NCBI GenBank assembly: GCA_945860375.1
Contig: CAMAQR010000034.1
Location: forward strand, 1-39,519
Reading direction: 5' to 3'
DNA length: 39,519 bases
From: Pseudorhodobacter antarcticus
Lineage (GTDB): Bacteria > Pseudomonadota > Alphaproteobacteria > Rhodobacterales > Rhodobacteraceae
The position numbers and the translations under genes were made by a program. Below the pieces are notes generated by a model, which made no database searches, had not been told where the DNA came from, and saw only the letters and a program-made list of their open reading frames with translations. The stretch's first letter is position 1. Every line of letters starts with the position of its first letter. Below are positions 145 to 37,644 of the stretch, one piece after another.

Positions 145-1290
145 CTAGGCCGCCTGCGCCATCCGCGCGGCGCAGGTGCCCAAGGGCATCATATCCGCGC
201 CCAGAACCAGCAAATCATCGGCATCGCGCCCGATGATTTGCGCCAGACCGGGTGCGCCAATCACCATGGAAGGCACCGTGACCGCCATCCGCAATGCCGC
301 CTCTGGCGCAATACCCAGCACCTGCACCAACCGTGATACGCTTTCAGCCATCGTGATATGCGCGCCCGCCAGCGACCCTTCGGCATTCACCAAGCGCCCG
401 CCGACCACCCGCACCTCTTGGCCGTAAAGCACGAAGCGATCCGACCCGCCGACAGTGGACATGGCGTCTGACACCAGAAACATCCGGTCCGGCACAGGCC
501 GTGCCCGGATCGCAAGTCCCAGCATGGCGTCGGCCACATGATGCCCGTCGCAGATGAATCCGCAGTACGCCGTCGAATTGATTGCCGCCCCCGTCACGCC
601 CGGCGCGCGGTTCAACATTGGCGACATCGCGTTGAAAAGATGAGTGAAACAGCTTGCTCCCTCGGCCAGCGCAGCCTGAACTGCCTCCGCCGTGGCATCG
701 GAATGGCCGATGGAGACGACCGCCCCCATCGCAACCAGGGCAGCTATCTGACCCGGCTGTACCGCTTCGGGCGCCAAGGTGGTTTTCACGAAAACGCCCC
801 TGTCGCGCAGCCGTTGCACATGCGCCATGGTCGTGCCGTCCAATGGCCGGATGAACTCTGAAGCGTGGGTGCCCCGGCGTGGCAGGCTCAGATGCGGGCC
901 CTCGATGTGCAAACCCAGAACGCCGCGCATGTCCTTGGCTTTGATCGCCGCATCCACCACCTGCGCCAACACCTCGGGCGTATCGCTGATCACTGTAGGC
1001 AAAATCCCCACCGTGCCAAACCGCCGGTGCGCGGCAGCCATGACCGCCATGGCTTGCGCCGTGGGTGCATTGTTCAGCAGCGCATCGCCACCGCCGTTGA
1101 CCTGCAAATCCAGATAACCCGGCGTCACAATCCCGCTCACACCGCGCCGTTCACCCCCTTGTGGAACTTCGGCCAACGCCGCCAATGCCACCACCCGGCC
1201 CTTCATCATACCAATCGCCATCCCGCTGCGCAGGGCTTGGCCATCAAAGACCTGATCGGGGCAAAGCCAAACGGGATGAGCGGAGGTCAT
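145..1290 (-). CDS. nagA: N-acetylglucosamine-6-phosphate deacetylase
   Basis: Cytoplasmic amidohydrolase removing acetate from GlcNAc-6-P (and possibly GalNAc-6-P) to give the amino-sugar phosphate. The 381-residue product has the family hallmarks in order: PGYLDLQVNGGG near residue 57, HIEGP near 128 (metal-binding Glu), GHSDA near 195, THLFNAM near 217, DGHH near 248 and VSDAM near 273. Length is normal for NagA. It is the last gene of the amino-sugar operon, and its ATG overlaps the stop of the GatZ-like gene by 4 bases (ATGA). The stop codon TAG lies inside the CTAG next to the left IS, so the IS inserted exactly at the 3' end of the gene without visibly shortening it. Confidence 0.93.
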   Translation of the reverse strand: MTSAHPVWLCPDQVFDGQALRSGMAIGMMKGRVVALAALAEVPQGGERRGVSGIVTPGYLDLQVNGGGDALLNNAPTAQAMAVMAAAHRRFGTVGILPTVISDTPEVLAQVVDAAIKAKDMRGVLGLHIEGPHLSLPRRGTHASEFIRPLDGTTMAHVQRLRDRGVFVKTTLAPEAVQPGQIAALVAMGAVVSIGHSDATAEAVQAALAEGASCFTHLFNAMSPMLNRAPGVTGAAINSTAYCGFICDGHHVADAMLGLAIRARPVPDRMFLVSDAMSTVGGSDRFVLYGQEVRVVGGRLVNAEGSLAGAHITMAESVSRLVQVLGIAPEAALRMAVTVPSMVIGAPGLAQIIGRDADDLLVLGADMMPLGTCAARMAQAA

Positions 1291-2582
1291 GGCACAGGCT
1301 CCTTGCCAAAGCTGGGGGCGGTGTCAAGGAAATAGGGTTCAAGGGCCAGCTGAACTTTGGCAAGAATAAGCGCCTGTGGCATTGGCCCCGCAATCTGTGC
1401 CGCGCGGGCAATCACGTCGGGGCCAAAGGCCTGCGTCAACAATGGCGCTGGCAACTGGCGGCCCTGCAGATCGTCCAGCACGGCTTTGACCGCTGCCATC
1501 GCCGCAGGCTGCGGCCAGTAATAGCGCATACGGTCGGCCAAACCGAAATGCCGCTCCACCCGCAGATCGCCGCTGCCACCCTGATAATGGCCCTGCCAAT
1601 AACCGGGCTGGGCCAGCATCAACCGTTCCATCACCTCACAAAGCGGCTCTGTGCTGGCCCAACCGGCCTGCTGTCGCAAACTGTCGAGACCGTACAGCGC
1701 CTGCCGATAGGCAAAGGTGAGCGCTGGACCAACCTTCTGGAATGCAAAGCCAAGTTGCGCCAGCCGTGGGAATACCACGGGGTGCTGGTAGTCGGTCGAA
1801 TGCGCCTCAAGGCAGACACCCGGCCAATCGGCCAGCACCGCCAGCAACCCCGGATCGCGGGGGGTCGGCATGTGATGAATGTCCATCGGCGAAAACTCGA
1901 CCCCCGGCTGCACCACCAGCCCACCGATCTGTCGCAGGGCATGCCCCAAGCCCGCTGCCTTGAACGCCTTGGCATGCGCCGCCAAGGTTGCCGCCGCATT
2001 GGCCGGAGTGGTTGGGGCAATCTCGCCATGCTCATCTGCACGCGCGCCACCCGGAGGCGGCACTTCGGTGCCGATCACGAACAGCAGCGCCCTCGGATCG
2101 CGCGCCGCCGCCAACGCCGCCGCTGCCAAATCTGCCGCCCGCGCCGCCGCCAAACCATCGCCCACCTGCGCAGGTTCGCCCTGACAGCCCTCGCTGCAAT
2201 CAAGGTGAATCTTGTTGAACCCGGCACGCACATAGTCCGCCACCAGCACGCGGGCCTTCGCCATCGCCAGATCGGCAGGGCCCTTGCGCCACGCCTGCGG
2301 ACCCAGATGGTCGCCGCCAAAGATGATCCGCGTCCGGGTCACCCCCGCCGCAAAGGCAATGCCATGCACAAAAGCGATGAAATCGGCGGGCCGCATCCCG
2401 GTGTAGCCGCCATCCTGATTGACCTGATTGCTGGTCGCCTCAATCACCACCGGGCGGTCCAATCGCTCGGCCAGCATCAGACTGGCCCGCAGCACCTCGG
2501 GATGGGCCGAACACACCGACGGAATCGCGCAGATTTGCCCGGCCCGGTTGCGCGCGATGATGTCCCGCAGAATGTCAGCCAT
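1287..2582 (-). CDS. GatZ/KbaZ-family protein, probable D-tagatose-6-phosphate 4-epimerase
   Basis: A 431-residue member of the GatZ/KbaZ family, historically called the non-catalytic subunit of tagatose-bisphosphate aldolase. Visible family features are IPSVCSAHP near residue 20, VIEATSNQVNQDGGYTGM near 46, FGGDHLGP near 90 and KIHLDCSEGC near 125. No GatY/KbaY aldolase and no tagatose-6-P kinase is present in the window. Some alphaproteobacterial GatZ-like proteins are established as tagatose-6-P 4-epimerases (known from Agrobacterium polyol pathways), which would convert AgaS product to fructose-6-P. That role is inference. The start at 2582 is chosen because the ATG overlaps the kinase stop by 8 bases; an upstream in-frame extension lies inside the kinase gene. 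Confidence 0.8.
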   Translation of the reverse strand: MADILRDIIARNRAGQICAIPSVCSAHPEVLRASLMLAERLDRPVVIEATSNQVNQDGGYTGMRPADFIAFVHGIAFAAGVTRTRIIFGGDHLGPQAWRKGPADLAMAKARVLVADYVRAGFNKIHLDCSEGCQGEPAQVGDGLAAARAADLAAAALAAARDPRALLFVIGTEVPPPGGARADEHGEIAPTTPANAAATLAAHAKAFKAAGLGHALRQIGGLVVQPGVEFSPMDIHHMPTPRDPGLLAVLADWPGVCLEAHSTDYQHPVVFPRLAQLGFAFQKVGPALTFAYRQALYGLDSLRQQAGWASTEPLCEVMERLMLAQPGYWQGHYQGGSGDLRVERHFGLADRMRYYWPQPAAMAAVKAVLDDLQGRQLPAPLLTQAFGPDVIARAAQIAGPMPQALILAKVQLALEPYFLDTAPSFGKEPVP

Positions 2583-3480
2583 GCCCAGCCTCCCGGTAGG
2601 CCGCGTAAGCTGCCCCGCGCGCGCCGGTGGCATCGCCGCCTTCGGCCAATCGAAGCAGTGGAATTTGAAATCCGGCCAGTTGTGCCTGTTGCAAACGGAT
2701 GGTCAACTCGTCCACCAACCCCTCGGCCCGTGCCAAACCACCACCCAACACCACGCAAGCGGGGTCAAGCGTCAGGGTCAGTGTCACCATCAGATCGGTT
2801 AGCAGGTCCATCCAGATCGACCAACATTCGGCAATGTCAGTCTCTGTTCTTTGCGCAACAATTTCTTGCGGCAGCATCTGCCGCCCGGTTTTCAACGCCA
2901 CTATCCGCGCCAAACCCGGCCCAGAGATCAGGGTTTCGGTGCACCCAATCCGGCCGCAGCCGCAGGCCAGCAAGGGCAACCCGTGGCGAATCATTGGCCC
3001 TGCGGACAGCGGAAAATGCCCAAACTCGCCGCCCGTGCCCGAAGGACTGTCCAGCAAGTGCCCATCCACAACCACCCCACCCGCCACGCCAGTGCCAAGG
3101 TTCAACCCCATCGCGGTCTTGAATCCCCGCGCTGCGCCGAACATCGCCTCTGACAGGGCCTGAGCGCGGCAGTCATTGACATAGGTGATGGCGCGGCCCG
3201 CCATGGCCTGAATGTCCGCTGGAAAGGGGCGGCCCGAGGCGGGCAAATTGGCCGTCAGCGCCAGTCCACTGGTCGGATTGATCAAACCCGCAGCCGAAAC
3301 GCCAATCGGAATCGGCCCGGCGCGCGCGGTGATCCAATCTATTTGATCGACCATCGCCCGCACCAACATGTCGTACCCCTTGGGCGTCGCTATGCGAAGG
3401 GAATCGACCCTGTTCCACGCGGAGTCAAAGAGTTGCGCCTCTATCTTGGTGCCGCCCAGATCAATCCCCGCCGCAATCAT
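2575..3480 (-). CDS. nagK: ROK-family N-acetylhexosamine kinase (NagK-like)
   Basis: A 301-residue sugar kinase of the ROK family. It opens with the phosphate-binding motif GIDLGGTKIEA, has NDCRAQALSEA near residue 103 (the position of the catalytic Asp region), GLNLGTGVAGG near 125, GEFGHFPL near 152, and the zinc-binding CGCGRIGC near 172 that defines ROK kinases. ROK kinases in this context phosphorylate free GlcNAc or related N-acetylhexosamine at O-6, consistent with an ABC importer that delivers unphosphorylated sugar. It overlaps the AgaS-like gene by 4 bases upstream and the GatZ-like gene by 8 bases downstream, so all are translationally coupled. The exact sugar (GlcNAc, GalNAc or ManNAc) cannot be read from sequence. 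Confidence 0.87.
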   Translation of the reverse strand: MIAAGIDLGGTKIEAQLFDSAWNRVDSLRIATPKGYDMLVRAMVDQIDWITARAGPIPIGVSAAGLINPTSGLALTANLPASGRPFPADIQAMAGRAITYVNDCRAQALSEAMFGAARGFKTAMGLNLGTGVAGGVVVDGHLLDSPSGTGGEFGHFPLSAGPMIRHGLPLLACGCGRIGCTETLISGPGLARIVALKTGRQMLPQEIVAQRTETDIAECWSIWMDLLTDLMVTLTLTLDPACVVLGGGLARAEGLVDELTIRLQQAQLAGFQIPLLRLAEGGDATGARGAAYAAYREAGHG

Positions 3481-4547
3481 TTCGCCACCACCGGATAGAG
3501 CTTTACCCCTGAAACCACCCGCGACAACGTGCCTTGGCCCGCAAACGGGTCATCAACGGGCAGACCCAAGGCATCAGACCAGACCACGGCCAAAACTTGC
3601 GCCAACACCACGGGCAGAATGATACCCCATCCGCCCGTCGGAATGTCCACATCGCCCCCCGGACCCGCCAACGTCGTCACAGACCCCGGAAACTGCACCC
3701 GTAACTCTGCCACCAGATCGGCATCATATCGGGCTGCGTGCGGGTCATCTGACCCAAACACCCAGATATTCGTAACCCCCCGTACAAAGGATTTCGGTCC
3801 GTGGCGGAATCCCAGTGTTGATTCCCAAAGAGCCGGAATTTGCCCTGCCGCCAGCTCCATCACCTTCAGCGCCGCCTCACGCGCTGCAAAGGTCAGCGGG
3901 CCAGAGCCGACAAACACCACCCGTTCGGGGATATGTGCGATCTGCGCAAGGCTCGTGAACTCCGGTAACAAACGGGTCAAGATTGTGGAAAGCGTCTCAA
4001 ACACCGCCGGAATCGCGCGCAATTCGACCGACCGATCGAACAGCGCCAGCGCCGTCAGCAGCATGGTCGAAAAGCTGGAGGTCATTGCAAACCCGGCGTC
4101 GTGCGTGGCGTCCGGCAGTACCACCACCCGCTGATGTCTCGCCGCGCGCGTGGCCAGTGCAGACACCGCGTTGCAAGTGATGTTCAGCCGGGGCGCGTCC
4201 GGGGCCAAGGCGTCCAACGCATCCAGCACCCCCAGCGTTTCCGCGCTGTCGCCAGACCGCCCAAAGCTGACGATCAGCGGATTGCGCCCGGTCAGATAGG
4301 CCCATGGCCGCGCCACCAGATCCGTTGTTGCCACGGCGCGCACCCGCGGACCGCCTTCCAAAGCGGCCTCGACCATCTCGCCGATATAGGCGGAAGACCC
4401 GGCCCCGCAGAACCAGACCTCGTCCACCGCCAGCCCGTCAATCCAGCCGCGCAGTCCGGCCACATCAAGCCGATTGCCCCAATCCGCCCAGATCGCAGGC
4501 TGTGCCTGTATCTCGCGCCACGTCGCATAGCGTGTCAGATCGGTCAT
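3477..4547 (-). CDS. agaS: SIS-domain aminosugar isomerase/deaminase, AgaS-like
   Basis: A 356-residue cytoplasmic protein with two SIS (sugar isomerase) domains. The first contains VWFCGAGSSAYIGE near residue 44 and SFGRSGDSAETL near 94, typical phosphosugar-binding loops. The second contains VVFVGSGPLTFAAREAALKVMEL near 210 and GFRHGPKSFV near 246. The combination resembles AgaS, which deaminates and isomerises galactosamine-6-P to tagatose-6-P. It stands between a second SIS protein and the ROK kinase with ATGA overlaps on both sides. Two different SIS enzymes in one operon suggest that both gluco- and galacto-configured aminosugar phosphates are handled, which is inference. Confidence 0.8.
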   Translation of the reverse strand: MTDLTRYATWREIQAQPAIWADWGNRLDVAGLRGWIDGLAVDEVWFCGAGSSAYIGEMVEAALEGGPRVRAVATTDLVARPWAYLTGRNPLIVSFGRSGDSAETLGVLDALDALAPDAPRLNITCNAVSALATRAARHQRVVVLPDATHDAGFAMTSSFSTMLLTALALFDRSVELRAIPAVFETLSTILTRLLPEFTSLAQIAHIPERVVFVGSGPLTFAAREAALKVMELAAGQIPALWESTLGFRHGPKSFVRGVTNIWVFGSDDPHAARYDADLVAELRVQFPGSVTTLAGPGGDVDIPTGGWGIILPVVLAQVLAVVWSDALGLPVDDPFAGQGTLSRVVSGVKLYPVVAK

Positions 4548-5563
4548 GTCGTTTGCGTCACTTTCGATAAGGTAGTGGGGTGGTCCGGGTCATGCCCAAG
4601 CGCCAAAGCCAAGGCCAGAACCAAGGGGTAAGTCAGATACAGCAGCAGCGCCGCCGCCGCCGCCGGTGTCAGATCCCTTGCGTCAACATCCATGGGGCGC
4701 AGCCGGAACACAGTGCCACCGGAATTGCGAAACCGCGTCTCGGCCGCGTCCAGACTGGCCTGCACCTCGCGCTGCCCAGTGTCCAGGATCAACACCAAAA
4801 GCGGCTTTGTGACCAGTTGCAGCGGGCCGTGCAGCACTTCGGTGCTGGAATAGGCCTCGGCATGCAGGGCGCAGGTTTCCTTCAGCTTGAGCGCCAGTTC
4901 CTGCGCCGCGCCAAAGCCGGTATCGCGACCGATGATATAAACGTGCTGGGCGCGCAACAGGGCGGACAGCAGGGCCTTGGTTTGAGGATGTTCCGCCCCA
5001 GCCAGCAGCGCGATGATCTGCGCGGAAGCCTGCGCGCGCGCGGCGTAATCTGGCTCTAACACAGCCAAAAATGCCATACCCGCTGCGATGGACCCGATGA
5101 CGGATTTGGTCGCGGGCACCGCCAGTTCGGGCCCCGCACCAATCGGAATTGTCACCTGCGCAACCTTTGAAACAGGCGAATCCGGCGCATTGACCAGTGC
5201 AACAACGGCGCCGCCACTGTCGCGGGCACCACGGGCAGAGCGCAGCAAATCCTCGCTTGCCCCCGATTGCGACACCACAAGCGACAGCGTTCCGGCCATA
5301 TCCACCCCCCGCCCCAAGGAGAATACCGAAGGCGGCAGCGACGTCATTGGCTTGGCAGTTTCGCGCATGAACTCGTAGGCCAAGATAGTGGCAGCAGCGT
5401 CGGACGACCCGCGCGCTATGGTGTAGATCGCGCGGCAATTGTCCAAATGCAGTGCTGCCAATTCTGCCCGCGCCCTTTCAGAAACCGCCTCTGCCACTGT
5501 GCGGGCGAAAACGCCGGGGGCTTTTGCAATCTCGGCGCTCATATATTGGCCGGCTGTGGTCAT
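4544..5563 (-). CDS. GlmS-like SIS-domain glucosamine-6-phosphate deaminase/isomerase
   Basis: A 339-residue protein equal to the isomerase half of GlmS without the glutaminase domain, the layout of NagB-II type GlcN-6-P deaminases. Motifs: TIARGSSDAAA near residue 48, SQSGASEDLL near 98, PATKSVIGSI near 149, IGRDTGFGAAQELALKLKE near 210 and AEAYSSTEVLHGP near 231. The expected reaction is GlcN-6-P to fructose-6-P plus ammonia. The start at 5563 is chosen because its ATG overlaps the preceding stop as ATGA; a second in-frame Met at 5542 is possible. No NagB of the classical fold is present, which fits this protein filling that step. Confidence 0.82.
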   Translation of the reverse strand: MTTAGQYMSAEIAKAPGVFARTVAEAVSERARAELAALHLDNCRAIYTIARGSSDAAATILAYEFMRETAKPMTSLPPSVFSLGRGVDMAGTLSLVVSQSGASEDLLRSARGARDSGGAVVALVNAPDSPVSKVAQVTIPIGAGPELAVPATKSVIGSIAAGMAFLAVLEPDYAARAQASAQIIALLAGAEHPQTKALLSALLRAQHVYIIGRDTGFGAAQELALKLKETCALHAEAYSSTEVLHGPLQLVTKPLLVLILDTGQREVQASLDAAETRFRNSGGTVFRLRPMDVDARDLTPAAAAALLLYLTYPLVLALALALGHDPDHPTTLSKVTQTT

Positions 5564-11116: not shown

Positions 11117-11132
11117 TCCAATGGGAAGCTTT

Positions 11133-20632: not shown

Positions 20633-20639
20633 CCGAAAA

Positions 20640-20663: not shown

Positions 20664-20669
20664 GGTCTT

Positions 20670-21959: not shown

Positions 21960-22009
21960 CGTTCTTCTCCACTGTTGTCGGACGCGGTTCACCCGCGCCT
22001 CTTGGGTTA

Positions 22010-30012: not shown

Positions 30013-30426
30013 ATGCCCAGCGAATATATCCTTGATGACCAAATCGGCTATGCGCTGCGGCGCGTCACGCAGCGCCACTTGTCGCTGTTTTCCGACCTGA
30101 TCCCCAATGTGACGACAACGCAATTCGCGGTCCTGGCCCGGCTCGACGAACTCGGACCCCAATCGCAAAATCTGCTGGGCCGCGCCACCGCCATGGATGC
30201 AGCCACCGTCAAGGGCGTGGTGGACCGCCTTTCTCGCCAAGGCCTTGTGCAAACCGCCCCCGACCCCGAAGACCGCCGCCGCCTGACCGTCACGCTGACC
30301 GCCGCCGGGGCCGCCCTGTTTCACAGCCACCGCGCCACTGCGCTGCAAGTGTCAGACCGCACCTTGCAACCGCTGACCGCGTTGGAACGTGCGCAACTGA
30401 TGGCCTTGCTGTCGCGGCTGACCTAA
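30013..30426 (+). CDS. MarR-family transcriptional regulator
   Basis: A 137-residue winged-helix regulator. TTTQFAVLARLDELGPQSQNLLGRATAMDAATVKGVVDRLSRQGLVQTAPDPEDRRRLTVTLT forms the helix-turn-helix and the DxRR wing typical of MarR proteins. It diverges from the hydroxylase/reductase operon and should repress it, releasing on binding a pathway compound, as NicR does for nicotinate genes in Pseudomonas (family knowledge, not homology shown here). It converges with the TetR gene, and the two stop codons overlap by 3 bases (30424-30425 shared), so the terminators must lie within the opposing genes. Confidence 0.88.
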   Translation: MPSEYILDDQIGYALRRVTQRHLSLFSDLIPNVTTTQFAVLARLDELGPQSQNLLGRATAMDAATVKGVVDRLSRQGLVQTAPDPEDRRRLTVTLTAAGAALFHSHRATALQVSDRTLQPLTALERAQLMALLSRLT

Positions 30427-31043
30427 CCGCCGTGCCGCGCCCGAAACGTTGCCAACTCTTGCACGCTCGGTGCTTGCGCGGTGAAGATCAGCACATAGTC
30501 CGGTATCCGCTGCAACCGCAGCTGCAATGATTCCTCGGTCCGCATCGCGATGTAGCCCACCTGCGTCAGATACACCGTCTGCGCCCGGATCCGCGCCTCT
30601 TGGGGTGCAAAGAAGAACGTTTCAAACATGCCGGTTAGGGCCTGAATCCGCACCTCGTCCACCTCTGCCAAAACCTCTGCCAGATCACCGTCGGTCAGCG
30701 CCCAAGTGCGGATGGCAAATTCCATCCGGCTGTCAAACAACGCGGGCGTGATCCAGCAATCACAAACATTCAGCATCGCCTCGGCCACCGAATCCGCCGG
30801 GGCGCAGGTCCGCGCGATCAGATTGGCGGTGTTCTGGCTTTGCCACCGCGCCACCAACCCGGCCAGCAAGGCCTCACGGTCCGCGAAATGCCAGTAGAAA
30901 CTGGTGCGCGACAGGCCAAGACGGGCGGCCAAAGGCATAACCTTCACCGACTCGACCCCGCCTTCGACCAAAAGATCATAGGCCGCGTTCAGCCAAATTT
31001 CCGCCGATCCGCGCCAACCGCGCATCTGTTGCACCTGTTCCAT
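30423..31043 (-). CDS. TetR-family transcriptional regulator
   Basis: A 206-residue regulator. The N-terminal helix-turn-helix includes SVKVMPLAARLGLSRTSFYWHFADREALLAGL near residues 34-64. The C-terminal ligand-binding part has conserved aromatic residues (ETFFFAPQEARIRAQTVYLTQVGYIAMRTEES), characteristic of a subgroup found beside catabolic operons. ATG at 31043 is used; a TTG two codons earlier is possible. It diverges from the flavoprotein gene and is the likely regulator of region 3. It may also act on the P450/amidotransferase divergent promoter, where an ACATGT core recurs. Confidence 0.86.
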   Translation of the reverse strand: MEQVQQMRGWRGSAEIWLNAAYDLLVEGGVESVKVMPLAARLGLSRTSFYWHFADREALLAGLVARWQSQNTANLIARTCAPADSVAEAMLNVCDCWITPALFDSRMEFAIRTWALTDGDLAEVLAEVDEVRIQALTGMFETFFFAPQEARIRAQTVYLTQVGYIAMRTEESLQLRLQRIPDYVLIFTAQAPSVQELATFRARHGG

Positions 31044-31086
31044 CCGCAAACATTACCACCCCTGCCTACATCGGCAACGCAAAAAC

Positions 31087-31102
31087 TTGACACACATGTC
31101 GA
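31087..31102. promoter_or_regulatory. Palindrome between tetR and the flavoprotein gene
   Basis: TTGACACACATGTCGA is a 16-base imperfect palindrome (TTGACA / TGTCGA, 5 of 6). It contains a perfect -35-like TTGACA on the plus strand, 46 bases before the flavoprotein start, so a bound TetR could block the promoter. No good -10 could be named. The core ACATGT recurs at 33937-33942. The other bases of the gap 31044-31137 show no further structure. Confidence 0.35.
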
Positions 31103-31137
31103 CTCCCGCTTTCATACCGAAAACCACGGAGTCCATC

Positions 31138-33171
31138 ATGTCCACCGATCCGCTTTTGCAGCCCTATCAGATGAAACACCTGACTCTGCGCAACCGGATC
31201 ATGACCACCAGCCACGAACCCGCCTATCCCGAAGACGGCATGCCCAAGGACCGTTACCGTCTGTACCACCTTGAGCGCGCCAAGGCCGGTGTGGCGCTGA
31301 CCATGACCGCAGGGTCCGCTACGGTGTCCAAAGACAGCCCGCCCGTGTTCAACAACATCCTCGCCTACAAGGATGAGGTGGTGGGCTGGATGAAGAAACT
31401 GACCGATGATTGCCACGAGGCCGGCGCGGCGGTGATGATCCAACTGACCCACCTTGGCCGCCGCACCCGCTGGGACAAGGGCGATTGGCTGCCCGTGGTC
31501 GCCGCTGGCAAAACCCGTGAACCCAGCCACCGCGCCTTTCCCAAAGTGATCGAAGACTGGGACATTGCCCGCATCATCACCGACTATGCGGATGCCGCCG
31601 AACGAATGCAGGCTGCGGGCGTCGATGGGGTTGAATTCGAATGCTATGGCCACTTGATGGACCAGTTCCTGTCGCCCTTCACCAATGATCTGGACTCCCC
31701 CTACGGCGGCAGCTTTGAAAACCGCGCCCGCTTTTCGCTCGAAGTGCTGGCCGCCTGCCGCAAACGCGTTGGCCAGAATTTCCTGCTGGGCGTACGCTAT
31801 ACCGCAGATGAGGTCGAACAAGGCGGCATCAGCGCCGACGAAGGCATCGCAATCGGCAAGATGTTCCGCGACTCCGGCAATGTCGATTTCCTGAACATCA
31901 TCAAAGGGCGCATCCACACCGACCCCGCAATGACCGATGTGATCCCGATTCAAGGCATGAAATCTGCCCCCCACCTCGATTTCGCAGGCCGCGTCCGGGC
32001 CGAGGTGGGCCTGCCCACCTTCCACGCCGCCCGCATTCCCGATGTCGCCACCGCCCGCCACGCCATTGCCACCGGGCAACTCGACATGGTGGGCATGACC
32101 CGCGCCCACATGGCCGACCCGCATATTGTGCGCAAAATCATCGAAGGCCGCGAGGGTGACATCCGCCCCTGCGTCGGCGCCACCTATTGCCTGGACCGCA
32201 TTTACCAAGGCGGCATGGCGCTTTGCATCCACAACCCGGCGACGGGCCGCGAAGAAACCATGCCCCACACGATCACCCGGGCCCTGCGCGCCCGCCGCGT
32301 GGTGATCGTCGGCGCAGGTCCGGCCGGGCTAGAGGCCGCCCGCGTCGCCGCCGAACGGGGCCACAAGGTGACGGTGTTCGAGGCAGCCGCTCACCCCGGC
32401 GGTCAGGTCCGCCTTGCCGCTCAAACCAAACGCCGCGCCGAGATGATCGGCATCATCGACTGGCGCATGGCCCAATGCGCCGCCCTCGGGGTCGAGTTCC
32501 GCTTCAACACCTGGGCCGAAGCCGCTGATATTCTTGCGGAAAACCCAGAAGTTGTCATCATCGCCACTGGCGGTTTGCCCGAAAAGGACATCCTGCAGTT
32601 TGGCAATGACCTGACAGTCTCGGCGTGGGATATCCTGTCTGGCGATGTCAAACCCGGTGCCAACGTTCTGCTTTACGACGATGCCGGCGACCACACCGCC
32701 CTGCAAGCCGCCCAAACCCTGACCGAATCCGGCGCCAAGGTCGAAATCATGACCCCCGACCGCAGTTTTGCCCCTGATGTGATGGCGATGAACCTTGTCC
32801 CCTACATGCGCGCCCTGCAGGATAAAGATGTCACCTTTACCGTCACTTACCGTCTGACCGGGGTGGAACGCGACGGCAACCAGATCAAGGCCACCATCGG
32901 CAGCGACTACCTGCCCCTGACCAAAACCGCGCAGTATGATCAGATTGTCGTCAACCACGGCACCCAACCGCTCGCCGACCTTTATTTCGACCTGAAACCC
33001 CGGTCGCAAAACCTCGGCGCGGTGGATTATGACGCCCTGATCGCGGGTCAGCCGCAAACCCTGAACGGTGGCCGCCAAGGCTTCCAACTCTTCCGCATCG
33101 GCGATGCGGTGGAATCCCGCAACACCCATGCCGCCATCTACGACGCCCTCCGCCTGATGAAAGACATCTAA
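31138..33171 (+). CDS. Trimethylamine-dehydrogenase/OYE-like flavoprotein, possible N-demethylase
   Basis: A 677-residue iron-sulfur flavoprotein. Residues 1-340 form an FMN TIM barrel of the OYE family (LRNRIMTTSH, MIQLTHLGRR, GVDGVEFECYGHLMDQFLSPFTN, GMTRAHMADP). A cluster region CVGATYCLDRIYQGGMALC has Cys345, Cys351 and Cys363, but Ala348 where trimethylamine dehydrogenase has its second Cys. From about residue 380 a nucleotide-binding domain starts VVIVGAGPAGLEAA. The family includes trimethylamine, dimethylglycine and N-methylproline demethylases, so oxidation of a methylated or alkylated amine is likely. GGAG precedes the ATG at 31138; the in-frame ATG at 31087 falls in the promoter palindrome. 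Confidence 0.82.
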   Translation: MSTDPLLQPYQMKHLTLRNRIMTTSHEPAYPEDGMPKDRYRLYHLERAKAGVALTMTAGSATVSKDSPPVFNNILAYKDEVVGWMKKLTDDCHEAGAAVMIQLTHLGRRTRWDKGDWLPVVAAGKTREPSHRAFPKVIEDWDIARIITDYADAAERMQAAGVDGVEFECYGHLMDQFLSPFTNDLDSPYGGSFENRARFSLEVLAACRKRVGQNFLLGVRYTADEVEQGGISADEGIAIGKMFRDSGNVDFLNIIKGRIHTDPAMTDVIPIQGMKSAPHLDFAGRVRAEVGLPTFHAARIPDVATARHAIATGQLDMVGMTRAHMADPHIVRKIIEGREGDIRPCVGATYCLDRIYQGGMALCIHNPATGREETMPHTITRALRARRVVIVGAGPAGLEAARVAAERGHKVTVFEAAAHPGGQVRLAAQTKRRAEMIGIIDWRMAQCAALGVEFRFNTWAEAADILAENPEVVIIATGGLPEKDILQFGNDLTVSAWDILSGDVKPGANVLLYDDAGDHTALQAAQTLTESGAKVEIMTPDRSFAPDVMAMNLVPYMRALQDKDVTFTVTYRLTGVERDGNQIKATIGSDYLPLTKTAQYDQIVVNHGTQPLADLYFDLKPRSQNLGAVDYDALIAGQPQTLNGGRQGFQLFRIGDAVESRNTHAAIYDALRLMKDI

Positions 33172-33191
33172 AATCTGTCTAAAATTTGGTT

Positions 33192-33235
33192 CATCTTGGC
33201 ACAAATATCCCGGGGGTCCGGGGGCTGGCCCCCGG
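33192..33235. repeat. TTGG-N3-AAATATCC repeat with GC hairpin (copy C)
   Basis: CATCTTGGCACAAATATCCC is followed by CCGGGGGC (33218-33225) and GCCCCCGG (33228-33235), an 8-bp stem. It lies between the convergent flavoprotein and amidotransferase stops and touches the latter gene's 3' end, so it can serve as terminator for both directions. On the minus strand the stem is followed by GGGATATTTG. Confidence 0.6.
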
Positions 33236-33236
33236 T

Positions 33237-33911
33237 TCAGCCGCCCTCAAAAAACCGCACCATCCGCGCCGCAATTGCGCCCCGGTCCGCCTGCGCGCTC
33301 AAACTCGCTGCCGCCCGTGCCGCCGCCCCCTCTGGCAGCTTCGGCCCATATTCCGCCACCAAAGCCGTCATGAACCCCGGCGTCATCTCGGGGTGATATT
33401 GTGTTGTCAAAACGCGGCCCATCGCAAAGCCCCCCACCGGACATTCTGCATTTCCGCCCAGCGAAACCGCACCCGCAGGCAAAACCAAAACCTGCTCACG
33501 ATGGGCCGCATAGAGCCGCATTCTGACGCCCTCCATCTCGGTTTCCACCAATCCAAACACCCAGCCGCCCGGATTGTCCCCAACAACCCCGCCCAGCGTC
33601 TTGGCAATCGCCTGATGCCCGAAACAGGCGCCAAACAGCGGCTGCGCCTGCGCCACCAGATCGCGGATCAGCGCCTCCAAGCGCCCGACCCACGGCGCGG
33701 TATCATGCACAGAAGCCGGGCTGCCCGTGATGATCCAGCCGTCATAAACCGCCCCCGCCGCCGGGAACTGCCCGTCCTTCACGGAATACACCGTCACCCG
33801 CCAATCGGGGCGCAGCTCCTGCAACAGCGCCTCAAACTTCGCGCCATCCCCCGGATGCACCTGCGCAAAATCGCTCTCATCCGTGTTCGCCATCAGCACT
33901 GCTATACGCAT
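33237..33911 (-). CDS. Class I glutamine amidotransferase-like gamma-glutamyl hydrolase
   Basis: A 224-residue stand-alone GATase1 protein. The nucleophile is Cys96 in LFGACFGHQA, and the His173/Glu175 pair is in TQYHPEMT, completing the Cys-His-Glu triad. The oxyanion strand is GWIITGSPASVHD near residue 58. There is no synthetase domain. Such free-standing proteins beside a glutamine-synthetase-like ligase remove gamma-glutamyl groups in polyamine (PuuD) and aniline (TdnT/AtdA2-type) pathways, which suggests the same here. The ATG at 33911 is the natural start; the frame is open far upstream opposite the P450 gene and is not coding there. Confidence 0.83.
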   Translation of the reverse strand: MRIAVLMANTDESDFAQVHPGDGAKFEALLQELRPDWRVTVYSVKDGQFPAAGAVYDGWIITGSPASVHDTAPWVGRLEALIRDLVAQAQPLFGACFGHQAIAKTLGGVVGDNPGGWVFGLVETEMEGVRMRLYAAHREQVLVLPAGAVSLGGNAECPVGGFAMGRVLTTQYHPEMTPGFMTALVAEYGPKLPEGAAARAAASLSAQADRGAIAARMVRFFEGG

Positions 33912-33921
33912 GATCTTCCGC

Positions 33922-33952
33922 TTTACATATTTATGAACATGTTTAGTATATT
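33922..33952 (+). promoter_or_regulatory. AT-rich divergent promoter with near-palindromic operator
   Basis: The 72-base gap between the amidotransferase (minus) and the P450 (plus) is markedly AT-rich. On the plus strand TTTACA (33922-33927), 16 bases, TAGTAT (33944-33949) fit -35 and -10. Between them lies TGAACATGTTTA (33934-33945), a 5-of-6 inverted repeat in the position of a repressor site. GAGGAA before 33984 is the ribosome site of the P450 gene. Confidence 0.45.
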
Positions 33953-33983
33953 TTGAAATCGCCCTTCCGGCAAGCGAGGAAAC

Positions 33984-35240
33984 ATGACGCTCTGGCACCC
34001 CTCCGATGACGGCCACGCCGATCTGTCCAGCCATGACGCCTTTGCCAATGGCGCACCGCTGAACACCTTCGCCCGACTGCGCCGCGACGATCCGATGCAT
34101 TGGACCGACTATGCGCAGGGTGAAAATTACTGGTCCGTCACCCGCCACGCCGATATCTTTGAACTCAACCGCCAGACCGATCTGCTGTCCTCGGCCCGCG
34201 GCATCCGCATCGAAGACCAGTCCTATGAGGAATACCTCGCCCGCCGCACTTTTCAGGAAACCGATGGCCCGGAACATATGGCCACCCGCATGCGCGTCGC
34301 CCGCGCGTTTTCCCGCCCGGTGATTGCGCAATTCGAACAGGTGATCCGCGACATCTGTGTCGATATCCTCGACAAAACCCTGCCCAAACTCACCTTCGAC
34401 GCCACCACCGACATCGCCCGCCAACTGCCGATGCGGATGTTGGGGCGCATTATGGGCACGCCGGACGCAGACCTGCCGTGGCTGGTGGCCAAGGGCGACG
34501 CGCTGATCGCCAACTCCGATCCCGATTTCACCACCCATGTGCTGGACCGCATGACCACTGATGAATTTCGGATGATGCCCTTCAACTCGCCTGCGGGGGC
34601 AGAGTTGTTCGTTTATGCCAAAGACCTGATGGCCCGAAAAGCCGCCACGGGTGACACCTCGGGCATCCTGCCGCTGATCATCGCGCCAGCCGCCGATGGC
34701 TCGGTGATGCCGGAACACGAGTTTCGCAATTTCTTCTGCCTGCTGGTCGCCGCGGGCAATGACACCACCCGCTATTCCATTGCCGCCGGGATTCAGGCGC
34801 TGGCGCACCAGCCCGAATTGCTGCCCCTGCTGCAATCCGGCGCCGTCTGGGACACCGCCCCCGACGAAATCATCCGCTGGGCCACCCCGGCCATCTATTT
34901 CCGCCGCACCGCCACCCGTGATTTCGACTACCACGGCAAGCAGATCAAAGCCGGGCAAAAGGTGGTCTATTGGTGGCTGTCCGGCAACCGGGATGAAACC
35001 GCGTTTGCAGACCCCAACCGCGTCAACTTCGCCCGCCAGAACAATCGCCACATGGCCTTTGGCCAAGGCGGCCCGCATGTCTGCCTTGGCATGTGGCTGG
35101 CCCGGCTTGAGGTGCGTGTGTTGTTCGAAGAACTTGCCAAAAGGCTGCGTTCCATCGAACCTGCTGGGGCGCAGAAATTCCTGCGATCGAACTTCGTCGG
35201 CGGCCTCAAATCGCTGCCTGTCTCCGTCACGCTGCAATAA
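33984..35240 (+). CDS. Cytochrome P450
   Basis: A 418-residue soluble bacterial P450. The I-helix oxygen-activation motif is AAGNDTTRYSIAAGIQAL near residue 256, the K-helix ExxR is EIIRW near 294, and the heme loop is FGQGGPHVCLGMWLARLEV with ligand Cys367. Length and the absence of a membrane anchor fit class I bacterial P450s, which need a ferredoxin and reductase; neither is encoded in the window. It is followed after 9 bases by the glutamine-synthetase-like gene, so the two are co-transcribed. The likely role is hydroxylation or N-dealkylation of a gamma-glutamylated amine or of the free substrate; this is inference. Confidence 0.9.
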   Translation: MTLWHPSDDGHADLSSHDAFANGAPLNTFARLRRDDPMHWTDYAQGENYWSVTRHADIFELNRQTDLLSSARGIRIEDQSYEEYLARRTFQETDGPEHMATRMRVARAFSRPVIAQFEQVIRDICVDILDKTLPKLTFDATTDIARQLPMRMLGRIMGTPDADLPWLVAKGDALIANSDPDFTTHVLDRMTTDEFRMMPFNSPAGAELFVYAKDLMARKAATGDTSGILPLIIAPAADGSVMPEHEFRNFFCLLVAAGNDTTRYSIAAGIQALAHQPELLPLLQSGAVWDTAPDEIIRWATPAIYFRRTATRDFDYHGKQIKAGQKVVYWWLSGNRDETAFADPNRVNFARQNNRHMAFGQGGPHVCLGMWLARLEVRVLFEELAKRLRSIEPAGAQKFLRSNFVGGLKSLPVSVTLQ

Positions 35241-35249
35241 AGGGCTGCC

Positions 35250-36551
35250 ATGACCGACCATCCCCAGCGCCTGCGCGCGATGTTCTGCGATCATCTGTCG
35301 ATCATGCGCGGCAAATACCTGCCCGCGTCGAAACTCAAAGACGATGAAAGCCGCTTCGCCCGGCCCACGTTTTCCGTGCATTACGACAAGGATCTGCTGA
35401 TCGAAGCGCCGGGAACCCTGTGCCTCGAAGGCATCCCGGACATGGCTTTGCGCTGGAATGGTGACGATATTCGACCGGGATGGGAGCCGAACACCCATGT
35501 CGTCACCGGTGACCTTTATGCAGGCGATGGGACAGAGATTCCGCTGTGCCCCCGCCTTGCCCTCAAACGCGCCGTCGCGGCATGGCAGGCGCTGGGCCTG
35601 ACCCCGAAAGTCGGCATCGAACTGGAGGCCTACGCCTTCATCCGCGCCCCCGATGGCCGACTTGTGCCCTATGACACCCCCGGCGGCGTGGTTTATGGCA
35701 CCGGCAATTTCAGCGATCCGTTGGGGTTCACCACCGCGATCTGGAACAAGGCGCAGGAAATCGGCCTGCCGCTGGACCTGATCACCGCCGAATACGACAC
35801 GCCGCAGTATGAATTCACCCTGACCTTCGGCCCCGCGGTAGAGCACGTCGATACCGTGGTGCTGTTCCGCCAGATGGCCCGCGAAGTGGCGCTGGCCCAT
35901 GGCGTCATCCTGACCTTCCTGCCCAAACCGATCCCCGGCAAGGGCGGCTCCGGCATGCACATCAACCTGTCCTTCACCGACGCCCACGGCACCAATGCGC
36001 TGGCCAATGGCGACCGCGGCGACCCCCACAACATGAACGCCCTGACCAAAGCCTGCATCGCCGGCTGGATGCATCACCACCGCGCCATGGCCGGTCTGAT
36101 CGCCCCCAACGCCCTGTCCTACAACCGCCTGCAACCGGCCAGCCTGTCTGGCTATTGGTGCAACTGGGGCGGTGACAACCGCAACGTCACCGTCCGCCTC
36201 TCGGCCGAGGGTGGCAAGAAAGCCCGCCTCGAACACCGTATGGCCGACGCCGCCTCAAACCCTTACACCGCTGTTGCCACGGTCTTGCAAGCGGCCCTGC
36301 TGGGCGTTCAGAACCATTACCCCCTGCCGCCGCTGGAAACCGGCAACGGCTTCACCTCCAACGACGCCGCCCACGGCACCGCCGCTTCCCTCACCGAGGC
36401 CCTGAACGACCTGGAATCCGACACTGCCTTGACCGCCGCTCTTGGCGCAGGCCTCGTCGAAAACCACCTCTACATGAAACGCGCCGAAGTCACCAAAACC
36501 GCCGACCTTGCTCCCGATGCCCTGCGCGACTGGTACATCTGGTATCTCTGA
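35250..36551 (+). CDS. Glutamine-synthetase-like gamma-glutamyl-amine ligase
   Basis: A 433-residue GS-superfamily enzyme. GS motifs are VGIELEAYAFIR near residue 120 (metal-binding Glu), EYDTPQYEFTLTFGP near 182, GKGGSGMHINLSF near 230 (ATP/metal site), NRNVTVRLS near 311 and RLEHRMADAASNPYTAVATVL near 326. The N-terminal beta-grasp is shortened and divergent (MRGKYLP, SVHYDKDLLIE). GS-like enzymes outside nitrogen assimilation ligate glutamate to amines (PuuA, GMAS, TdnQ). With an amidotransferase and a P450 next to it, that role is more likely than ammonia assimilation. The repeat with hairpin just downstream may end transcription. Confidence 0.85.
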   Translation: MTDHPQRLRAMFCDHLSIMRGKYLPASKLKDDESRFARPTFSVHYDKDLLIEAPGTLCLEGIPDMALRWNGDDIRPGWEPNTHVVTGDLYAGDGTEIPLCPRLALKRAVAAWQALGLTPKVGIELEAYAFIRAPDGRLVPYDTPGGVVYGTGNFSDPLGFTTAIWNKAQEIGLPLDLITAEYDTPQYEFTLTFGPAVEHVDTVVLFRQMAREVALAHGVILTFLPKPIPGKGGSGMHINLSFTDAHGTNALANGDRGDPHNMNALTKACIAGWMHHHRAMAGLIAPNALSYNRLQPASLSGYWCNWGGDNRNVTVRLSAEGGKKARLEHRMADAASNPYTAVATVLQAALLGVQNHYPLPPLETGNGFTSNDAAHGTAASLTEALNDLESDTALTAALGAGLVENHLYMKRAEVTKTADLAPDALRDWYIWYL

Positions 36552-36556
36552 CCCTT

Positions 36557-36600
36557 CACATTGGCCCAAATATCCCGGGGGCTCGGGGGTTGGCCCCCGA
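36557..36600. repeat. CACATTGG-N3-AAATATCC repeat with GC hairpin (copy D)
   Basis: TCACATTGGCCCAAATATCCC starts 5 bases after the GS-like stop and is followed by TCGGGGG (36583-36589), loop TTGG and CCCCCGA (36594-36600). It shares CACATTGG and the 3-base spacing with copy A. Its place after the last gene of the unit suggests a terminator. The rest of the gap to the ParB-like gene shows no promoter. Confidence 0.6.
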
Positions 36601-36656
36601 AGGCTCACCCCGAACGCCCGCCCCAAAAACCGCACCTTAACCAGTCCCGCGCTTCC

Positions 36657-37547
36657 ATGGCGCAAACGAAAGGCCGCGCCATGGACATTCACCACATCCC
36701 CACCGACCAGATCCTCGACGACGCCCTGCTGCGCGATCGCAGCCATCTGCCCGAGGACGCCCTGCAAGACCTCGTCTTCTCGATCTCGCGTGATGGCCTG
36801 CGCCAACCCATCGAACTCTTCGAACTGGCCGAACCGCCCGAGGGCAGCCCCGACATCCACCGCTACGGCCTCATCTCCGGCCTGCGCCGCCTCTCCGCCA
36901 TCCGCCGGCTTGCCGCCTGGCGCGCCAACGGCGACTTCGCCACCATTCCCGCCTTCATCCGCACCCCCGCCACCATCCCCGAGGCGATGGCCCAGATGAT
37001 CGCCGAAAACGAAATCCGCGAAAACCTGTCCCCGTGGGAGCGCGGGCTGACCATCGTCACCGCCGTCAACCGCGGCCTTTTCGACAGCATCGATCAAGCC
37101 ATCGTCGCCCTGCACCCCACCGCGCTCAAACAAAAACGCAACCGCCTGCGCACCCTCGCCCTTGTGGCAGAAGAGTTGGAGGGTCACTTCTCCACCCCCG
37201 AAACCCTGACCCAATCCCAGATGGAACGCCTCAGCGCCGCCCTGCGCGGTGGCCTCACCGCGCTGATCCGCCAGATCCTGACCGAGAACGCGGGCAAAAG
37301 CCTGCAAAGCCAATGGGCCGCCCTGATCCCCACCCTGACCGAGGCCCTCAGCCCCGAAACCGAACCCACCGCCACCACCCCAGGCCGCCCCCGCCGCCTG
37401 CTGCACCTGAAGCAGGGCCTGGTGATCCGCCGGGAGCTTTGCAAGAACGGCTGGGCCTTGAAGTTCACCGGGCCGGAAGCGCGGAGGGGTGGTATGATCG
37501 ACGATGTGATGGACTACATCGAGCAATGGTTTCAGCCGGGGGTGTGA
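36657..37547 (+). CDS. ParB-like nuclease-domain protein
   Basis: A 296-residue protein of the ParB/RepB/Spo0J superfamily. The N-terminal ParB domain has IPTDQILDDALLRDRS, SISRDGLRQPIELF near residue 48, YGLISGLRRLSAIRRL near 70 (the CTP/nuclease-like GxRR box) and MIAENEIRENLSPWERG near 110. A helical DNA-binding part follows to about residue 215. It lacks a partner ParA, so plasmid partition is not implied; related stand-alone proteins occur widely in Rhodobacterales with unknown roles. ATG at 36657 or 36681 are both possible and neither has a good ribosome site. Confidence 0.72.
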   Translation: MAQTKGRAMDIHHIPTDQILDDALLRDRSHLPEDALQDLVFSISRDGLRQPIELFELAEPPEGSPDIHRYGLISGLRRLSAIRRLAAWRANGDFATIPAFIRTPATIPEAMAQMIAENEIRENLSPWERGLTIVTAVNRGLFDSIDQAIVALHPTALKQKRNRLRTLALVAEELEGHFSTPETLTQSQMERLSAALRGGLTALIRQILTENAGKSLQSQWAALIPTLTEALSPETEPTATTPGRPRRLLHLKQGLVIRRELCKNGWALKFTGPEARRGGMIDDVMDYIEQWFQPGV

Positions 37548-37562
37548 GCGGGTTGAGCGCCC

Positions 37563-37592
37563 TTGACGTGGTACAATTTTTAGTAGGATACT
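37563..37592 (+). promoter_or_regulatory. Candidate promoter of the OLD-family gene
   Basis: TTGACG at 37563-37568 and GATACT at 37587-37592, 18 bases apart, match the -35 and -10 elements in five and four of six positions. Base composition turns AT-rich exactly here, about 50 bases before the gene start. Confidence 0.35.
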
Positions 37593-37644
37593 GTTCGAAA
37601 GAGTAATAAAACTAAAATTGGCAGGCATCTATTGGAGTAGAAAA

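What the first reader, a model, noticed from the sequence alone, without database searches (positions are those of the whole stretch)
30423..36551. P450-dependent gamma-glutamylation cassette for an amine
Seen: a GS-like ligase, a stand-alone class I amidotransferase with an intact Cys96-His173-Glu175 triad, a P450 with heme Cys367, and a trimethylamine-dehydrogenase-like flavoprotein, with a TetR gene alongside. Known: polyamine (Puu) and aniline (Tdn/Atd) pathways pair a GS-like ligase with an amidotransferase to attach and remove gamma-glutamate around an oxidation step. Inference: here the oxygenase is a P450 and the flavoprotein is a possible N-demethylase, so the substrate may be an alkylated or aromatic amine. 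I do not know of a described pathway with this exact set.
Basis: partly seen in the sequence, partly recalled or inferred. Interest (0 to 1): 0.78.

Follow-up and report, generated by a model that had tools for sequence, protein, structure and literature searches.

The report
P450 glutamylation cassette, aromatic amine breakdown
Three neighbouring genes in a Rhodobacter-type bacterium look like a kit that tags an aromatic amine (probably tyramine) with glutamate, oxidises it with a cytochrome P450 and removes the tag, so that it can enter a known ring-opening pathway.

Summary
The five genes are real and intact, with the stated catalytic residues. It is amidotransferase / P450 / GS-like ligase / [2Fe-2S] ferredoxin: P450 in 40 of 40 relatives, amidotransferase in 39, ferredoxin in 34, flavoprotein in 4. 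The window has lost the ferredoxin gene. The flavoprotein lacks TMADH's FMN-binding Cys, so an N-demethylase is not supported. The cassette goes with tyrosine catabolism, above all the homoprotocatechuate meta pathway: HpaE is in 59 of 62 ligase-bearing genomes against 73 of 332 others (kinship not controlled). In the closest collinear relative a whole Hpa operon lies on the same contig. In a class-wide sample, 7 of 10 cassette regions hold ring-cleavage-type genes and 4 an aromatic-amino-acid-decarboxylase-like gene. Best reading: gamma-glutamylation-dependent P450 oxidation of a tyrosine-derived amine, most likely tyramine to dopamine level. It works like Puu and Tdn/Atd, with a P450 as oxygenase. 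Substrate and order of steps are inferred. New variant of a known kind.

The parts
33237..33911 (-). Class I amidotransferase-type hydrolase, predicted gamma-glutamyl amide hydrolase (224 aa)
   Evidence: PF00117 43 bits; triad C96/H173/E175, invariant in 65 of 65 aligned; matches gamma-glutamyl peptidase 1; beside P450/GS in 39 of 40 loci
33984..35240 (+). Cytochrome P450 (418 aa), predicted oxygenase acting on the glutamylated amine
   Evidence: PF00067; Cys367, ExxR 295, I-helix AGNDTT, heme Cys and ExxR invariant in 71 of 71 aligned; closest solved chain CYP125MRCA
35250..36551 (+). Glutamine-synthetase-like ligase (433 aa), predicted gamma-glutamyl-amine synthetase
   Evidence: PF00120 234 bits; below the cut-offs of all five NCBIfam families matched; Glu327 position is Leu299, Leu or Met in 69 of 69 aligned
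36553..36692 (.). Scar where the cassette's ferredoxin gene is missing; the hairpin-like stretch (36568-36599) that precedes the ferredoxin gene in relatives is kept
   Evidence: Ferredoxin ORF lies here in L035, L003, L001; the window runs from that stretch into the ParB-like gene's leader
31087..33171 (+). FMN/FAD oxidoreductase of the NCR/DCR/TMADH superfamily; accessory gene of this clade, role unknown
   Evidence: in 4 of 40 relatives
30423..31049 (-). TetR-family regulator that travels with the flavoprotein gene
   Evidence: PF00440 38 bits; in 3 of 40 relatives, all with the flavoprotein
185..5542 (-). Amino-sugar catabolic genes collinear with the G001 contig, where an Hpa operon lies immediately beyond them
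   Evidence: blastn 75-77% identity to L113/L001; L113 HpaI-like gene ends at 14248, the window match begins at L113 14272; L113 genes named

Best explanation
A catabolic cassette for an aromatic biogenic amine. The GS-like ligase joins glutamate to the amine (ATP-dependent). The P450, driven by a [2Fe-2S] ferredoxin, oxidises the neutral gamma-glutamyl amide. The class I hydrolase removes the glutamate. The product is deaminated and oxidised to 3,4-dihydroxyphenylacetate and cleaved by the Hpa enzymes. The most likely substrate is tyramine, with the P450 adding the 3-hydroxyl (gamma-glutamyl-tyramine to gamma-glutamyl-dopamine). Shown: gene content, conserved active sites, genome co-occurrence, physical linkage. 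Inferred: substrate, reaction, order of steps. The window copy has lost its own ferredoxin and would need another.
For: Ligase: Leu or Met at the Glu327 position in 69 of 69 aligned, a non-polar residue as in described amine ligases. HpaE over cut-off in 38 of 40 genomes holding the loci; in the family sample of 394, 59 of 62 ligase-positive against 73 of 332 ligase-negative genomes. HpaE within 25 kb of the ligase/P450 in 14 of 74 (8 of 62 and 6 of 12), against 0.9 expected at p = 0.0125 per genome (p as used). 8 of 40 loci hold four or more Hpa-type genes. Class-wide sample: P450 in 11 of 385 genomes; of the 10 new regions 7 hold ring-cleavage-type genes and 4 the decarboxylase; in L133 profiles confirm HpaE-like, LigB, FAA hydrolase and decarboxylase genes before P450, ligase, ferredoxin and a ferredoxin reductase. 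The decarboxylase is closest to solved DOPA/tyrosine decarboxylases and found in 68 of 74 cassette-positive, 48 of 62 Hpa-positive cassette-negative and 14 of 60 double-negative genomes. Transaminase NF005683 over cut-off in 35 of 40 (no cassette-negative control). Closest collinear relative: Hpa operon on the same contig, HpaE, HpaD, HpaH over cut-off; L035 has HpaI-like (319 bits, cut-off 369) and MarR genes beside tetR.
Against: No enzyme assay, growth test or expression data. Co-occurrence is not corrected for kinship. No Hpa gene or decarboxylase lies in the window, and its whole genome is not held. 20 of 40 loci show none of the panel's tyrosine/Hpa genes within the fetched flanks. In L021, L023, L029 and L030 the neighbours are homogentisate genes (homogentisate dioxygenase and fumarylacetoacetase confirmed by profile), and G030 has no HpaE over cut-off. 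In 39 Hpa regions of cassette-negative genomes, 12 have the decarboxylase and 9 the transaminase but none the P450 or ligase, so the pathway also runs without the cassette; HpaB is as rare there (absent in 51 of 62) as in cassette genomes (63 of 74). No amidotransferase was found by tblastn in L131-L134. The nearest solved P450s (CYP125, CYP124) hydroxylate aliphatic chains (recalled).
Confidence: 0.52

Rival explanations
1. Same pathway, other chemistry: the P450 removes a methyl group (for example O-demethylation of 3-methoxytyramine) or oxidises the side chain of a phenethylamine, rather than adding the 3-hydroxyl.
For: Genome context fixes the end of the pathway (a catechol entering Hpa or LigB-type cleavage) but not the P450 reaction. 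Hpa regions with the decarboxylase occur without the cassette (12 of 39), so dopamine-type substrates may not need it.
Against: Linkage to an aromatic-amino-acid-decarboxylase-like gene (11 of 74 within 10 kb; L131-L133, L137) favours plain tyrosine-derived amines.
Confidence: 0.16
2. The cassette serves tyrosine or phenylalanine breakdown through the homogentisate branch, not the homoprotocatechuate branch.
For: In 4 of 40 loci (L021, L023, L029, L030) homogentisate dioxygenase lies near the cassette, HPPD in 5 of 40; G030 has no HpaE over cut-off.
Against: HpaE over cut-off in the other three of those genomes and in 38 of 40 in all; homogentisate needs no amine intermediate (recalled).
Confidence: 0.07
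3. One reading: a pathway for alkylated amines, anilines or betaines in which the flavoprotein is an N-demethylase.
For: All four genes are neighbours in the window and in L001, L008, L035; overall similarity to TMADH.
Against: Flavoprotein in 4 of 40 relatives; FMN-binding Cys position Glu44, Fe-S Cys position Ala365 in 4 of 4 aligned; linked genes belong to tyrosine catabolism.
Confidence: 0.07
4. A cyclic secondary amine system like mycobacterial pip/mor, where a P450 opens piperidine or morpholine and a GS-like gene is nearby.
For: In Gulosibacter, P450 genes bioI and pipA (GMOLON4_437, 3051) carry tags adjacent to those of glutamine synthetases GMOLON4_438 and 3052 (passages of PMC9477822). 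The window also has a caprolactamase-like pair at 13730-17420.
Against: The caprolactamase-like pair lies in a stretch absent from the collinear relative L001; the conserved linkage is to Hpa genes. The P450 was not compared with PipA or MorA sequences.
Confidence: 0.07
5. Conjugation for detoxification, storage or biosynthesis: gamma-glutamyl-tyramine is made and oxidised as an end product.
For: Gamma-glutamyl-tyramine is an intermediate of methanofuran biosynthesis in archaea (recalled; a methylofuran and an MfnB paper seen only in the listing).
Against: Neighbouring genes are catabolic: ring cleavage, aldehyde dehydrogenase, transaminase, uptake. No search for mfn genes was made.
Confidence: 0.06

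Closest known systems
Puu pathway (PuuA gamma-glutamylputrescine synthetase, PuuD hydrolase; recalled) and Pseudomonas PauA/SpuI ligases
   Same: GS-like ligase plus class I hydrolase around an oxidation step; best NCBIfam match of the ligase is GGputSyn (181 bits, cut-off 650)
   Different: Oxidation by a P450, linked to aromatic ring cleavage; far below the GGputSyn cut-off
Aniline oxygenase systems Tdn/Atd (GS-like TdnQ/AtdA1, amidotransferase TdnT/AtdA2; recalled)
   Same: Glutamylate an amine, oxidise with an oxygenase, feed a catechol into meta cleavage
   Different: Those use a Rieske oxygenase and anilines (recalled); here a P450, and the linked pathway is homoprotocatechuate
pip/mor P450 systems of mycobacteria and Gulosibacter
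   Same: A P450 with ferredoxin partners and, in Gulosibacter, a glutamine synthetase gene with the next locus tag (passages)
   Different: Cyclic amines; contiguous ferredoxin reductase; no Hpa linkage mentioned in the passages seen
3,4-dihydroxyphenylacetic acid catabolon of Pseudomonas putida U (tyramine and dopamine; title seen in reference lists)
   Same: Tyramine and dopamine funnelled to 3,4-dihydroxyphenylacetate
   Different: Tyramine there is, as recalled, deaminated first and hydroxylated by HpaBC; here hydroxylation is proposed at the level of a glutamylated amine
GlnA4 and PauA7, gamma-glutamyl monoamine/polyamine ligases (passage of PMC6529630)
   Same: Non-polar residue in place of Glu327
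   Different: Ethanolamine and polyamines; no P450 partner in the passage seen

Membership tests
Gamma-glutamyl-amine ligase (GS-like, not glutamine synthetase) | Glutamine synthetase catalytic fold with catalytic Glu/Arg positions kept | tested here: met
   PF00120 234 bits; E124, E126, E188, R293, R311, R316 invariant in 69 of 69 aligned (their roles recalled)
Gamma-glutamyl-amine ligase (GS-like, not glutamine synthetase) | Loss of the ammonia-handling Glu327 | tested here: met
   Leu or Met in 69 of 69 aligned (position set by the alignments)
Gamma-glutamyl-amine ligase (GS-like, not glutamine synthetase) | Loss of Asp50 | tested here: inconclusive
   The region aligns ambiguously; an Asp of the query faces Asp50 in one alignment
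Gamma-glutamyl-amine ligase (GS-like, not glutamine synthetase) | Ligates an amine, not ammonia | not testable with these tools
   Needs enzyme assay
PuuA (gamma-glutamylputrescine synthetase equivalog) | Score over the curated NCBIfam cut-off | tested here: not met
   181 bits against a cut-off of 650
Puu/Tdn-type glutamylation cassette | Class I amidotransferase-type hydrolase beside the ligase | tested here: met
   In the window and 39 of 40 loci, triad 65 of 65 aligned; not found in L131-L134
Tdn/Atd aniline oxygenase | Rieske oxygenase components | tested here: not met
   The oxygenase of the cassette is a P450
Trimethylamine/histamine dehydrogenase | Cys for covalent 6-S-cysteinyl FMN and four Fe-S Cys | tested here: not met
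   Cys30 position Glu44; one cluster Cys is Ala365, both in 4 of 4 aligned
Homoprotocatechuate pathway locus | hpa ring-cleavage genes at the locus | tested here: not met
   None in the window; operon on the collinear contig of G001
Class I P450 system | Ferredoxin encoded with the P450 | tested here: not met
   In 34 of 40 relatives, missing in the window; L133 also has a ferredoxin reductase

The most novel reading that the evidence does not exclude
A bacterial tyrosine-amine route in which ring hydroxylation is done by a P450 on gamma-glutamyl-tyramine (bypassing HpaBC), giving gamma-glutamyl-dopamine; and in the L131-L134 lineage, where no amidotransferase was found, the catechol ring may even be cleaved while the glutamate is still attached.
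Probability: 0.32. Interest if true: 0.78.

Novelty: new variant of a known kind. Interest (0 to 1): 0.62.

Why it matters
Tyramine and dopamine turnover in bacteria is usually explained by deamination plus HpaBC (recalled). Of the 74 family genomes with this cassette, 63 lack the HpaB family while 70 carry HpaE. A glutamate-masked P450 step could explain part of that gap, though HpaE genomes without the cassette also mostly lack HpaB (51 of 62). It would give a third oxygenase type for gamma-glutamylation pathways and assign function to a ligase family that is labelled glutamine synthetase wherever a source named it in the 120 listed hits, one 'hypothetical protein' apart. It makes a concrete substrate testable with four purified proteins.

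Tried and rejected
Rejected: a four-gene unit including the flavoprotein (4 of 40). Rejected: HpaB absence as a signature of the cassette (63 of 74 against 51 of 62). Rejected: the flavoprotein as a replacement for transaminase NF005683; of the four flavoprotein-bearing genomes G001, G008 and G035 still have it, G002 (a 2.7 Mb bin) does not. Rejected: a link to the window's caprolactamase-like pair, which lies in a stretch that L001 lacks. Tested and failed: an HpaI end at the window's left edge, predicted from synteny; positions 1-132 read instead as the end of an IS-type transposase (recognised from memory, not searched).

Led nowhere: ten literature searches, of which the listings showed 20 of 39, 15 of 318, 2 of 2, 15 of 33, 2 of 2, 20 of 177, 10 of 100, 9 of 9, 10 of 13 and 20 of 24 papers. 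Papers were seen as listings only, except passages of PMC9477822, PMC10606097, PMC6529630, PMC10537072 and PMC12718150. No listed paper described a P450 plus GS-like plus amidotransferase pathway for tyramine or dopamine by title or abstract start; most subscription papers are not held. Structure prediction and fold search were not used. Not compared directly: PipA/MorA and TdnQ/AtdA1 sequences.

Limits of counts: the co-occurrence test is not corrected for phylogeny. The 32 regions were partly chosen for nearness to HpaE and are not used for proportions, except that the 11 regions of P450-without-ligase genomes among them are counted as such; the proximity count uses all 74 genomes. In one search five of the 13 Hpa-linked loci count only through HpaR-, HpaF- or HpaI-type hits (L018, L019, L020, L025, L035); eight hold four or more Hpa-type genes. 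The alignments include the window's own sequence and leave out hits under 80% coverage; the flavoprotein alignment has 4 rows (window, L001, L008, L035). Gene calls in relatives are by simple ORF and tblastn rules.


Full report
What is there. Counting from MRIAVL, the amidotransferase has Cys96, His173 and Glu175; the P450 heme cysteine is Cys367. The amidotransferase (33237-33911, minus) diverges from the P450-ligase pair (33984-36551, plus). To the right lie a ParB-like gene and an AAA/OLD-type ATPase; to the left a MarR gene, a molybdenum hydroxylase, a branched-chain/urea-type ABC transporter, a caprolactamase-like pair and amino-sugar genes.

The conserved unit. One scan of genome contigs with the ligase gave 40 loci, nearly all Rhodobacterales or other Alphaproteobacteria by their titles. 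Among these 40, P450 is found in 40, the amidotransferase in 39 (the other, L022, starts inside the P450 gene), a ~103-aa [2Fe-2S] ferredoxin in 34, a GntR gene in 20, the flavoprotein in 4 and the TetR gene in 3. So the core is amidotransferase, P450, ligase, ferredoxin. The window lacks the ferredoxin: the hairpin-like stretch that precedes it in L035, L003 and L001 is kept at 36568-36599, then the sequence runs into the leader of the ParB-like gene. L026, L027, L038, L039 and L040 also show no such gene; L008 ends just after the ligase.

Active sites. In alignments that include the window, the amidotransferase triad is invariant in 65 of 65, the P450 heme Cys and ExxR in 71 of 71, and six catalytic Glu and Arg positions of the ligase in 69 of 69; the position of Glu327 of glutamine synthetase is Leu (43) or Met (26). 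A published passage describes loss of Glu327 and Asp50 in the amine ligases PauA7 and GlnA4, with Trp or Phe in place of Glu327 (PMC6529630). Our Asp50 position is ambiguous. The amidotransferase matches gamma-glutamyl peptidase 1 among solved structures. The P450 is closest to CYP125/CYP124-type chains.

The flavoprotein. It belongs to the NCR/2,4-dienoyl-CoA reductase/TMADH superfamily (232, 191 and 140 bits). The residue aligned with TMADH Cys30 is Glu44, and the Fe-S motif has Ala365 where TMADH has its second cluster Cys, in 4 of 4 aligned sequences. An N-demethylase is therefore not supported; the role is open.

What the neighbours say. In relatives the cassette often sits beside genes of the homoprotocatechuate meta pathway: HpaD, HpaE and HpaH over NCBIfam cut-offs, plus HpaG- and HpaI-like (below cut-off), CHMI/HpaF-like and MarR/HpaR-like genes. 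Also nearby are an omega-transaminase over the NF005683 cut-off (solved relatives), 4-hydroxyphenylpyruvate dioxygenase, a TctABC transporter and a PLP decarboxylase whose best solved relatives are DOPA, aromatic-amino-acid and tyrosine decarboxylases. Of the 40 loci, 13 hold at least one Hpa-type hit other than HpaE (8 of them four or more), 11 the transaminase, 5 HPPD, 4 homogentisate dioxygenase, 2 the decarboxylase, and 20 at least one of all these; 20 hold none.

Co-occurrence. HpaE is over its cut-off in 38 of the 40 genomes that hold those loci (misses G002, a 2.7 Mb bin, and G030). In 394 genomes of one family, the ligase (E <= 1e-120) is in 62, HpaE in 132 and the P450 in 72. HpaE is in 59 of 62 ligase-positive and 73 of 332 ligase-negative genomes (Fisher p 3e-29, kinship not controlled). 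The decarboxylase (E <= 1e-100) is in 68 of 74 cassette-positive genomes, 48 of 62 Hpa-positive cassette-negative ones, and 14 of 60 with neither (the 60 are the lowest-numbered such handles).

Linkage. HpaE lies within 25 kb of the ligase in 8 of 62 genomes, and of the P450 in 6 of the 12 genomes with P450 but no ligase hit at that threshold. Taking 50 kb in 4 Mb as the chance per genome, 0.9 of 74 would be expected (binomial tail). In 9 of the 11 fetched regions of those 12 genomes a 42-48% identical ligase does lie beside the P450. The decarboxylase lies within 10 kb of the ligase or P450 in 11 of 74. As a control, 39 Hpa regions from cassette-negative genomes hold the decarboxylase in 12, the transaminase in 9 and the P450 or ligase in none.

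A wider sample. In 385 genomes of the class the P450 (E <= 1e-80) is in 11, including G003 itself. Of the 10 new regions, 7 (L131-L136, L139) hold ring-cleavage-type genes, 4 (L131, L132, L133, L137) the decarboxylase, 4 (L135, L137-L139) the transaminase, and L140 (a 7.9-kb contig) none; the ligase follows the P450 in 8 of 8 where the contig continues. In L133 the order is MarR, HpaE-like dehydrogenase (512 bits, cut-off 638), LigB-type dioxygenase, FAA hydrolase, acetoacetate-decarboxylase-family protein, aromatic decarboxylase, P450, ligase, ferredoxin, ferredoxin reductase; L131 and L132 look alike by tblastn only. No amidotransferase was found by tblastn in L131-L134.

The window's own lineage. 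The window is collinear by DNA with the contig of L001 (G001): window 185-5542, 11088-11892 and 30430-36553 match at 75-82% identity. On that contig an Hpa operon (HpaR-, F-, E, D, G-, H, I-like; HpaE, D and H over cut-off) ends 24 bp before the point where the window's match begins; about 6.4 kb of amino-sugar genes and GntR separate it from tetR there. In the window that point is occupied by what reads as the end of an IS-type transposase (positions 1-132), so what lies beyond cannot be seen. Another relative, L035, has an HpaI-like (319 bits, cut-off 369) and a MarR gene directly beside tetR. Relative to L001, the 11.9-30.0 kb stretch of the window, with the caprolactamase-like pair and the molybdenum hydroxylase, is extra.

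Mechanism proposed. Tyrosine is decarboxylated to tyramine; the ligase makes gamma-glutamyl-tyramine; the P450 with ferredoxin hydroxylates the ring; the amidotransferase releases dopamine; transaminase and aldehyde dehydrogenase give 3,4-dihydroxyphenylacetate; Hpa enzymes cleave it. Gene content, conservation and linkage are shown; every reaction is inferred. Masking the amine would make the substrate neutral and may keep the catechol amine from auto-oxidation (inference). Alternatives that keep the pathway but change the P450 reaction (O-demethylation, side-chain oxidation) are not excluded.

Results against this reading. Hpa regions with the decarboxylase exist without the cassette (12 of 39). 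The HpaB family is missing from 63 of 74 cassette genomes but also from 51 of 62 cassette-negative Hpa genomes. In L021, L023, L029 and L030 the linked genes are homogentisate genes, and G030 has no HpaE over cut-off. Half of the loci show no linked tyrosine gene. The closest solved P450s act on aliphatic chains (recalled).

Known or new. It works like Puu and Tdn/Atd (glutamylate, oxidise, hydrolyse) but scores 181 of 650 bits against the PuuA family and is not a Rieske system. P450 genes with neighbouring glutamine synthetase tags are known from pip-type loci (passages of PMC9477822). The searches listed no paper describing this set for tyramine or dopamine; the library is limited and the lists were partly capped. 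I call it a new variant of a known kind.

Noticed in passing
window 1-132: Reads as the C-terminal end of an IS-type transposase (recognised by eye) exactly where the collinear relative has an Hpa operon; an insertion or an assembly break at an IS.
   Followed up: partly
window 13730-22000: Caprolactamase-like pair (CapA-like 480 bits, CapB-like 295 bits, cut-offs 1000) next to a urea/branched-chain ABC transporter; the stretch is absent from the collinear relative L001.
   Followed up: partly
window 26441-29910: Fused 2Fe-2S/molybdopterin hydroxylase with FAD subunit, xanthine-dehydrogenase-like but below the cut-offs of the families listed; substrate unknown.
   Followed up: no
window 36561-39372: ParB-like gene and an AAA/OLD-type ATPase distantly similar to defence ATPases (MADS3, retron Eco8); the ParB-like gene also follows the cassette in L003, L004, L035.
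   Followed up: no
L131-L134: Compact operons with LigB-type dioxygenase and acetoacetate-decarboxylase/MppR-like protein (profiles run on L133, L134), P450, ligase and ferredoxin but no amidotransferase found; a second P450 (25-26% identical) lies at the other end.
   Followed up: partly
L016, L018-L020, L022, L024, L025, L034 downstream of the cassette: A fusion of a kynureninase-like and an arylformamidase-like part beside the cassette, with an inositol-monophosphatase-like gene in most of these loci; role unknown.
   Followed up: no
L016, L028, L030, L032-L034 (HDAC-like); L017, L021, L029, L030, L032-L034 (MBL fold), upstream of the cassette: Histone-deacetylase/acetylpolyamine-amidohydrolase-like protein (recognised by eye; no NCBIfam match for the L034 and L032 copies) and an MBL-fold hydrolase near the transaminase.
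   Followed up: no
L027: Cassette at 63-68% identity (ligase, P450) in a MAG titled Granulosicoccaceae (a gammaproteobacterial name): horizontal transfer or mis-binning.
   Followed up: no
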